A stretch of DNA of 38,513 bases, taken from contig JAUYJN010000027.1 in assembly GCA_030700255.1 (NCBI GenBank), positions 1 to 38,513 on the forward strand, read 5' to 3'. Positions 5,691-23,872 of the stretch are shown one piece after another. How positions within the stretch are numbered: position 1 is the first letter of the stretch; each line of letters starts with the position of its first letter. A program made the translations under genes and the position numbers. The notes beneath the pieces are model-generated. The model did not search any database and had not been told where the DNA came from. It saw only the letters and a program-made list of their open reading frames with translations. Source of the DNA: Candidatus Peregrinibacteria bacterium. Its GTDB lineage: Bacteria > Patescibacteriota > Gracilibacteria > UBA1369 > JABINC01.

Positions 5691-6085
5691 TGGTGGGCCC
5701 GGATGGACTTGAACCATCGACCAATCGGTTATGCATCTCACTATCACTTTCGTGACCTCTTTTGAGTTTGTAAGCTGGACTATCCCTTCTTCCTTCTTTT
5801 TTTTAAAAGTGAGGAAGTCTGCCGTCTAGTCTCTACACCTTCTCCTTTTCTAAAGGAGCTTGGCTCGGGATTGCCATTGTACTTTATGTACAGAAGGTTT
5901 CCCCGAATTTGACAGATATACATTTGAAAATCTCTTTTCAAACTGCCCATTGAAATTCGACCATATCTATATTATTCATTGGTTATGAAAGTTTACTCTA
6001 ACTGCCATGCGGAAATTCATAACCAGGAACTAGATTTAGGTCGACTTCTTTAAGCCGACTGCTCTAACCACTGAGCTACGGGCCC
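5691..6085 (-). tRNA. tRNA-Ile2(CAU), interrupted by a group I intron
   Basis: The exons are 6085-6053 (33 nt) and 5733-5691 (43 nt, CCA encoded); joined they give a standard 76-nt tRNA. Acceptor stem GGGCCCG/CGGGCCC, D arm GCTC..GAGC, anticodon stem GTCGG/CCGAT, loop CTCATAA (anticodon CAT), variable loop TTGGTC, T arm GATGG TTCAAGT CCATC, discriminator A. The G1-C72 pair excludes an initiator tRNA. The variable loop and T arm resemble bacterial tRNA-Ile2, whose C34 is converted to lysidine by TilS. An elongator tRNA-Met is the alternative reading. The 5' part alone would be missed by an intron-unaware search. Confidence 0.85.
5734..6052 (-). ncRNA. group I self-splicing intron (IC3-like) in the tRNA anticodon loop
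   Basis: A 319-nt intron between U33 and C34, ending in the expected terminal G (GATG then CATAACC). Core elements in order on the minus strand: P2 hairpin GGTTATGAA/TTTCATAACC. Hairpin TTTGAAAA/TTTTCAAA. P3 strand CTGTC pairing GACGG. P4 TTCGGG/CCCGAG. P5 hairpin TGTAC/GTACA. Q motif GGCAATCCCGAGCCAAGC. P6 hairpin CTCCTTT/AAAGGAG. R motif GTAGAGACTAGACGG. P8 CTTCC/GGAAG. S motif GGGATAGTCC, with P7 GACTA/TAGTC. P9 TCAC-GAAA-GTGA. P, Q, R and S resemble cyanobacterial tRNA-Leu introns from memory. P1 pairs exon GTCGGCT with AGTCGAC but lacks an obvious U.G at the 5' site, so that boundary is less sure. There is no homing-endonuclease ORF. Confidence 0.88.
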
Positions 6086-23785: not shown

Positions 23786-23872
23786 GCCCGGGTGGCGGAA
23801 ATGGTAGACGCGCGGGACTTAAAATCCCGTTTCGCTTGCGAAGTGCGGGTTCAATTCCCGCCCCGGGCACCA
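23786..23872 (+). tRNA. tRNA-Leu(UAA)
   Basis: 87 nt with encoded CCA. Acceptor GCCCGGG/CCCGGGC, anticodon loop with TAA flanked by GGGA/TCCC, long class II variable arm (TTCGCTTGCGAA region), T arm GCGGG TTCAATT CCCGC. It has no intron, although tRNA-Leu(UAA) is the classical host of cyanobacterial group I introns. Confidence 0.93.

What the first reader, a model, noticed from the sequence alone, without database searches (positions are those of the whole stretch)
5691..6085. Group I intron splitting the anticodon loop of tRNA-Ile2(CAU)
Joining 6085-6053 to 5733-5691 gives a perfect 76-nt tRNA. The removed 319 nt carry P2-P9 pairings including P7 GACTA/TAGTC, P4 TTCGGG/CCCGAG and a GAAA-capped P9, and the intron ends in G. 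From memory, the best-known tRNA-Ile(CAU) introns sit at other loop positions (after the anticodon in Azoarcus), so a U33/C34 insertion with a cyanobacterial-Leu-like core is notable. The intron-less tRNA-Leu(UAA) at 23786 shows that the usual host is empty here.
Basis: partly seen in the sequence, partly recalled or inferred. Interest (0 to 1): 0.85.

Follow-up and report, generated by a model that had tools for sequence, protein, structure and literature searches.

The report
Group I intron in tRNA-Ile2 gene
In an uncultured ultra-small bacterium (Candidatus Peregrinibacteria) the only gene found for the transfer RNA that reads the codon AUA is interrupted by a 319-base RNA that probably cuts itself out, and that still carries the decayed remains of a DNA-cutting "homing" gene on its opposite strand; such introns are known, but the backwards homing gene seen whole in its relatives is unusual.

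Summary
Positions 6085-6053 + 5733-5691 (minus strand) form a complete tRNA-Ile2(CAU); the 319 nt between them are a group I intron (Rfam RF00028, 74.8 bits, E 2e-17). U33/C34 is the only splice phase with a 7-nt loop and a terminal G. Across 32 related introns 97.1% of the pairs in my P2-P9.1 model form (about 45% or less when slid by a base), with 262 double changes. A relative of the same genus has the unsplit gene at the same locus. The split gene is the only Ile2 gene found in the genome; TilS is present.

25 of 89 genomes of the window's order (Ca. Peregrinibacteria) carry the Ile2 intron.

The window's P1 loop is that module minus about 306 nt, leaving the relic MKVYSNCHAEIHNQELDLGRLL. 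Relatives of this HNH in tRNA-Asn and tRNA-Thr introns lie sense. Splicing and homing are inferred, not shown. A 2025 preprint on Patescibacteria tRNA introns exists; I could not read it.

The parts
6053..6085 (-). tRNA-Ile2 5' exon (nt 1-33, ends ...GUCGGCU, U33)
   Evidence: Sequence; matches unsplit Ile2 genes 1-33
5734..6052 (-). Group I intron, 319 nt, ends in the terminal G at 5734
   Evidence: RF00028 74.8 bits over 5962-5753; splice phase from 7-nt loop and terminal G
5691..5733 (-). tRNA-Ile2 3' exon (C34-A76, CCA encoded)
5943..5951 (-). Internal guide sequence AAUGGGCAG: U33 pairs G5947 (wobble), C32-G5946, G31-C5945, C29-G5943 (G30 opposite A5944 is a mismatch)
   Evidence: GGGC invariant in 32 introns; GGGCUG with exon CGGCU against GGGUUG with exon GGACU in betaproteobacteria, a change on both sides
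5952..6039 (-). P1 loop insert of 88 nt: both ends of the ~390-nt homing-gene-bearing loop of relatives, middle deleted
   Evidence: Colinear local alignments to 13 HEG-bearing loops, summed score 433 against at most 310 in 300 shuffles; global alignments
5985..6053 (+). Antisense relic of an HNH homing endonuclease gene: MKVYSNCHAEIHNQELDLGRLL*
   Evidence: Profile match VYSNCHAEIHNQELDLG to the end of the HNH model; tblastn 7e-4 with L121 and 2e-7 with L092, the latter partly exon
5922..5943 (-). P2 hairpin with GAGA loop
   Evidence: 6 of 7 modelled pairs with changes on both sides
5911..5916 (-). P3 5' strand (pairs 5823-5818)
   Evidence: 100% of cells paired, 3 pairs with double changes
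5864..5907 (-). P4-P5 domain (P4 5907-5902 with 5869-5864)
   Evidence: P4 99.5% paired, one pair with a G-C to U-A change on both sides
5827..5831 (-). P7 5' strand GACUA (pairs UAGUC 5782-5778), guanosine-binding site
   Evidence: 100% paired, two pairs with double changes
5789..5817 (-). P8 hairpin
   Evidence: 5 of 5 pairs with changes on both sides
5737..5774 (-). P9.0 extension (5774-5770 with 5741-5737) enclosing P9 and the GAAA-capped P9.1
   Evidence: 97-99% of cells paired with double changes

Best explanation
[quoted passage not shown] The pre-tRNA folds with the guide sequence (5951-5943) pairing the end of the 5' exon, putting U33 opposite a G; guanosine bound in P7 attacks after U33, the freed U33 attacks after the terminal G (5734), and the exons join to give a tRNA whose C34 TilS can then convert to lysidine for reading AUA. 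The intron belongs to a mobile lineage common in Ca. Peregrinibacteria. Full members carry, in the loop of P1 and on the opposite strand, an HNH endonuclease gene with its own promoter-like box, most likely the homing endonuclease that spread the intron. In the window that gene has lost about 102 codons, so this copy should still splice but can no longer home by itself. Shown from sequence: core, splice phase, empty site in a sister genome, relic. Inferred: splicing, guanosine use, homing, promoter activity.
For: RF00028 hit well over its cut-off. Splice phase with terminal G in 25 of 25 order members. Structure: 97.1% of 1599 cells paired, 262 double changes against 74 in shuffles, about 45% or less when slid; guide sequence covaries with the exon. 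Empty site: G001, same genus, unsplit Ile2 next to the same subtilase gene (51.5% identity); BLAST pieces break at 6053/5733. Sole copy: the only intact CAU tRNAs found are one Met-like and one fMet-like gene; TilS present, 195.9 bits. Homing gene: 13 HNH ORFs of about 120-128 aa at one place and antisense, codon-position differences 0.35/0.24/0.58, phage HNH family phrog_2255 6e-21. Relic. Patchy spread: 25 of 89 in the order, 4 of 264 in the rest of the class; two well-supported branches join Peregrinibacteria introns with Moranbacteria introns.
Against: No RNA data: transcription and splicing are not shown. The P1 of the window has one mismatch (G30 opposite A5944; U in most relatives). The relic is short (about 22 codons) and its profile score on its own is weak (5.4 bits, E 0.006); it convinces through place, strand and colinearity. 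The intron tree is poorly resolved (6 of 29 branches well supported). The assembly is 97% complete in 46 contigs, so a second Ile2 gene on missing sequence cannot be excluded. The predicted HNH fold gave only weak PDB matches (best E 0.05, though the best are HNH nucleases).
Confidence: 0.92

Rival explanations
1. The split gene is a dead or dying tRNA; the intron no longer splices and AUA is read by another tRNA.
For: One P1 mismatch in the window; the homing gene is already decayed; no RNA evidence.
Against: No other Ile2 gene found in a 97% complete genome, TilS kept, exons without defect, core helices intact and covarying.
Confidence: 0.05
2. The intron is simply inherited in this order and is not mobile; presence and absence reflect losses.
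For: 25 of 89 genomes across many families carry it, against 4 of 264 in the rest of the class; family labels on the tree are somewhat clustered.
Against: Maintained antisense HNH gene in 10 order members; Moranbacteria introns nest with Peregrinibacteria introns at 95/88 and 97/95 support; Chloroflexota and Saccharibacteria copies at the same site; a sister with an empty site.
Confidence: 0.15
3. The antisense HNH ORF is not the homing enzyme of this intron but a selfish gene that used the P1 loop as a safe home.
For: It is antisense and has its own promoter-like box; in G045 a full-length family member stands alone 1.8 kb from a HEG-less Ile2 intron; relatives sit sense in tRNA-Asn and tRNA-Thr introns.
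Against: Nearly always inside tRNA group I introns or right beside such tRNA genes; the same site carries a different, known homing family (PF11645) in fMet introns.
Confidence: 0.2
4. The similarity of the window's P1 loop to the HNH gene is chance or only shared RNA structure.
For: Short; the best single tblastn hit (L092) includes exon bases.
Against: Both ends align colinearly with HEG-bearing loops, 433 against at most 310 in 300 shuffles; in frame, right strand, right place; leader YYSLVMK matches relatives' CYYLVMK.
Confidence: 0.05

Closest known systems
Azoarcus tRNA-Ile(CAU) group I intron
   Same: Same host tRNA, small core; from memory very similar J4/5, J6/7 and P7 sequences
   Different: From memory the Azoarcus intron sits after the anticodon (U36) and has no homing gene; here U33/C34 with a P1-loop relic
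Ile2 introns of Acidovorax and Burkholderia (tRNAscan-SE 2.0 paper, PMC8450103)
   Same: Group I intron in tRNA-Ile2; Burkholderiales copies fetched here also split U33/C34 (L070, L145, L151)
   Different: Guide GGGUUG and exon GGACU instead of GGGCUG and CGGCU; no HNH gene seen in the ones fetched
Synechocystis tRNA-fMet intron with I-Ssp6803I (PMC1995217)
   Same: CAU tRNA; fMet introns fetched here use the same U33/C34 site, and many are about 650 nt with a homing gene
   Different: Homing gene is PD-(D/E)XK (PF11645), sense in the fMet introns fetched here, not antisense HNH
HNH genes in tRNA-Asn(GUU) and tRNA-Thr(UGU) group I introns of other Patescibacteria
   Same: Same HNH family, group I introns in anticodon loops
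   Different: Sense orientation, mostly without the N-terminal CxxC part; other insertion sites
Didymium I-DirII (antisense homing gene in an rDNA intron; PMC3073962)
   Same: Homing gene antisense to the host transcript with its own promoter
   Different: Eukaryotic rDNA, Pol II promoter, spliceosomal intron
Nakagawa et al. [quoted passage not shown]
   Same: Patescibacteria tRNA group I introns
   Different: Known to me only from its title in a reference list; contents not read, may overlap

Membership tests
Group I intron (Rfam RF00028) | Covariance score over the curated cut-off | tested here: met
   74.8 bits against 50
Group I intron (Rfam RF00028) | P3-P8 and P4-P6 core with P7 | tested here: met
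   97.1% of cells paired, double changes in nearly all variable helices
Group I intron (Rfam RF00028) | Terminal G before the 3' exon | tested here: met
   G at 5734; G in all 32 aligned introns. Note that the pattern used to collect them demands this G.
Group I intron (Rfam RF00028) | U-G wobble at the 5' splice site in P1 | tested here: met
   U33 opposite G5947; GGGC invariant; exon/guide covariation between lineages
Group I intron (Rfam RF00028) | GTP-dependent self-splicing | not testable with these tools
   Needs RNA
Subgroup IC3 (Azoarcus/Anabaena type) | Subgroup-specific core | not tested
   No subgroup models at hand; similarity to Azoarcus is from memory
tRNA-Ile2(CAU) | CAU anticodon after splicing and Ile2-type body, not Met or fMet | tested here: met
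   91-96% identical over 76 nt to the best unsplit genes of the order; Met-like and fMet-like genes found separately
tRNA-Ile2(CAU) | Lysidine synthetase TilS in the genome | tested here: met
   TIGR02432 195.9 bits
Mobile (homing) group I intron | Intact homing endonuclease gene | tested here: not met
   Only a ~22-codon relic in the window; intact in relatives
Mobile (homing) group I intron | Empty cognate site in close relatives | tested here: met
   G001 same genus, same neighbour gene, unsplit Ile2; about 49 unsplit genomes in the order
HNH homing endonuclease (relatives' ORF) | HNH motif | tested here: met
   phrog_2255 6e-21, all 13 members match; Pfam HNH stays below its cut-off, best 5e-4
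HNH homing endonuclease (relatives' ORF) | Site-specific cleavage of the empty tRNA-Ile2 site | not testable with these tools
   Needs protein

The most novel reading that the evidence does not exclude
In Ca. Peregrinibacteria and allied Patescibacteria the tRNA-Ile2 intron carries its HNH homing endonuclease on the antisense strand in the P1 loop, expressed as a leaderless mRNA from its own promoter, while the same endonuclease family lies sense in tRNA-Asn and tRNA-Thr introns; so the homing gene and its promoter move as a cassette and changed orientation between tRNA hosts, and the window holds a snapshot of its in-frame loss.
Probability: 0.6. Interest if true: 0.6.

Novelty: new member of a known kind. 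Interest (0 to 1): 0.42.

Why it matters
A tRNA gene that seems single-copy and essential in a genome-reduced bacterium depends on a ribozyme, and standard tRNA finders miss or mislabel it (here as tRNA-Leu), so Ile2 would wrongly be scored as absent in such genomes. The relatives catch the homing cycle at all stages: empty site, intron with intact antisense endonuclease, intron with a relic (the window), intron without it, and a stand-alone endonuclease beside a HEG-less intron. That makes gain, loss and orientation change of homing genes testable in one clade. The intron itself is ordinary for its kind.

Tried and rejected
Other splice phases: CUU|AUAA (Ile UAU) and CUUAA|AA (Leu UAA, ARAGORN's choice) keep a 7-nt loop but leave the intron ending in C or U; rejected because group I introns end in G and all relatives put a G before CAU. 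Early P1 candidate GGCUU/AAGUC near the intron start: dropped when the conserved CUAAGUC turned out to be the reverse of the HNH gene's C-terminal Asp-Leu codons, and the downstream GGGC guide covaried with the exon. Exon co-conversion: intron-bearing genes nearly all have GUCGG/CCGAU, but so do 23 of 29 unsplit genes read, so no signal. Searches of plasmids and phages with the locus: only short tRNA pieces, plus related cores in uncultured phage records. Many viral-contig pattern hits lack a 5' exon and look like prophage attachment sites in tRNA 3' halves. PDB fold search of the HNH model: weak. Text searches found no paper on antisense HNH genes in tRNA introns among open-access papers.

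Full report
WHAT IS THERE. On the minus strand, 6085-6053 and 5733-5691 are the two halves of a tRNA, separated by 319 nt. cmscan with Rfam finds a full-length group I intron match (5962-5753, 74.8 bits, cut-off 50, E 2.3e-17), the only one in the genome. Plain ARAGORN sees nothing there; allowing introns it finds the gene but labels it tRNA-Leu(UAA) with shifted boundaries. With a 7-nt anticodon loop and an intron that ends in G only one phase remains...GUCGGCU | intron ...GAUG | CAUAACCGAU..., between U33 and C34. The joined tRNA is Ile2-type: 91-96% identical over its length to the best unsplit genes of the order, while a Met-like and an fMet-like CAU tRNA are found elsewhere in the genome. 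No second Ile2 was found; TilS, which makes C34 of Ile2 read AUA (established knowledge), is present (195.9 bits).

STRUCTURE. I aligned 32 intron cores from the guide sequence to the 3' exon and counted a hand-made P2-P9.1 model (drawn on the window sequence with an eye on the alignment, then counted on all): 97.1% of 1599 cells pair, 32 of 50 pairs have changes on both sides, 262 double-changed cells against 74 in shuffles, and about 45% or less of cells pair when the partners are slid. RNAalifold finds most of the same helices on its own. The guide is GGGC followed by U, A or G and then G, invariant in GGGC, and lies after a variable P1 loop. Where the exon reads CGGCU the guide reads GGGCUG; in betaproteobacterial Ile2 introns the exon reads GGACU and the guide GGGUUG, a change on both sides that supports P1 with U33 opposite G. 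In the window the guide is GGGCAG, which costs one pair.

WHERE IT LIVES. Three public contigs match members of the window's order by length and sequence (PFRX01000041.1 = G088:C32 and WJJQ01000091.1 = G080:C63, both titled Candidatus Peregrinibacteria; PNNO01000005.1 = G053:C1, titled only 'bacterium'), so the window is from Ca. Peregrinibacteria or a close ally. A pattern that requires G where unsplit tRNAs have U33 finds split Ile2 in 25 of 89 genomes of the order and none with the reversed control, and in 4 of 264 further genomes of the class. About 49 genomes of the order have a full-length unsplit match (my count). The sister species G001 has the unsplit gene beside the same subtilase gene, and the alignment breaks at the splice sites. 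The same site is used far beyond the order: of the loci fetched, 136 have a matching 5' exon, mostly fMet and Ile2 from many phyla. The site is therefore not special.

THE HOMING GENE. Ten order members, and Moranbacteria and Saccharibacteria relatives, have 595-664-nt introns with an ORF of about 125 codons antisense to the tRNA, in the P1 loop, whose length is nearly constant (389-396 nt). The proteins share CxxC pairs, HH, SNR and CxNCHxExH motifs, hit phage HNH endonuclease families (phrog_2255, 6e-21) and vary mostly at third codon positions (0.35/0.24/0.58), so they are kept as proteins. An extended -10-like box TGNTANNRT stands just before ATG (the hexamer ends 6 nt before it) in 9 of 13 (mean 0.09, at most 2 of 13 in shuffles), with TTGA-like bases at a -35 spacing in several; if used, the mRNA would start at or near the ATG. 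This is an inference from sequence.

THE WINDOW'S RELIC. The window's P1 loop (6039-5952, 88 nt) aligns at one end with the gene's C-terminal end and at the other with its promoter end, summed score 433 against at most 310 in 300 shuffles. Its antisense strand reads MKVYSNCHAEIHNQELDLGRLL*, that is the start and the C-terminal motif with about 102 codons missing. The profile score alone is weak (5.4 bits, E 0.006).

SPREAD. Presence or absence of the homing gene changes at least 11 times on the (poorly resolved) intron tree, and two well-supported branches pair a Peregrinibacteria with a Moranbacteria intron, which suggests transfer between classes. Searching 287 Patescibacteria genomes with the HNH model finds relatives in tRNA-Asn(GUU) and tRNA-Thr(UGU) introns, all sense, whereas the Ile2 ones are all antisense (one unclear case, L296, is antisense in a tRNA that ARAGORN calls Ser). 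In a few cases the HNH gene stands beside, not inside, the tRNA (L274, L286, L293, L297-L299).

HOW IT WORKS. Most likely: the pre-tRNA folds, guanosine in P7 attacks after U33, U33 attacks after the terminal G, the exons join, and TilS then modifies C34. Relatives' HNH enzymes presumably cut intron-less Ile2 genes and let the intron copy itself in; the window's copy has lost that ability. Splicing, cleavage and transcription are not shown by anything here.

KNOWN AND NEW. Group I introns in Ile2 and fMet anticodon loops are known (PMC8450103; PMC1995217 for I-Ssp6803I), and group I introns in CPR tRNAs have been noted (PMC8172020). A 2025 preprint on a novel insertion site in Patescibacteria tRNA genes exists (title seen; not held). 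Antisense homing genes are known in Didymium rDNA (PMC3073962). I found no report of antisense HNH genes in bacterial tRNA introns, in open-access papers only. The window's intron is therefore filed as a new member of a known kind; the antisense, self-promoted homing cassette is the more novel reading.

Noticed in passing
L274 (G045:C5:22147-22509, minus): A full-length HNH of the Ile2-intron family (4e-63) stands alone about 1.8 kb from this genome's HEG-less Ile2 intron and keeps TATAATGCAGTTATG in front of it; possible action in trans.
   Followed up: partly
L298, L299 (also L286, L293, L297): HNH genes of the family lie directly upstream of a tRNA-Asn gene without intron (about 18 and 11 nt away in L298 and L299), or beside rather than inside the tRNA-Thr or tRNA-Asn intron.
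   Followed up: partly
L278-L303: HNH genes in group I introns of tRNA-Asn(GUU, between positions 35 and 36) and tRNA-Thr(UGU) in Patescibacteria, sense strand, introns of about 517-626 nt.
   Followed up: partly
L002-L006, L014 (Asn); L007, L011 (Phe); L009 (Asp): Other tRNA group I introns in the same order.
   Followed up: no
L066, L067, L073, L074, L087, L089, L095, L106, L110, L112, L119, L126, L148, L153, L156, L162, L167: fMet introns of about 620-700 nt at U33/C34 encode sense proteins of the I-Ssp6803I kind (PF11645 confirmed for one, L074); L165 (Omnitrophota) has a LAGLIDADG instead.
   Followed up: partly
L174, L179, L201, L215, L220, L239; L182, L199; L186, L221, L230; L200, L226; L235: Viral contigs with split CAU tRNAs and compact 200-240-nt introns, the same intron ends recurring between contigs.
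   Followed up: no
LR756501.1 about 190300-190452: A 735-kb uncultured phage carries a stretch 73% identical to the window's intron core.
   Followed up: no
G084:C18:197066-201681 and G085: Seven to ten group I introns per genome, several clustered; probably an rRNA operon.
   Followed up: no
L127 (Anaerolineae): 205-nt Ile2 intron at the same site with only about 10 nt in the P1 loop: a form without the homing module.
   Followed up: no
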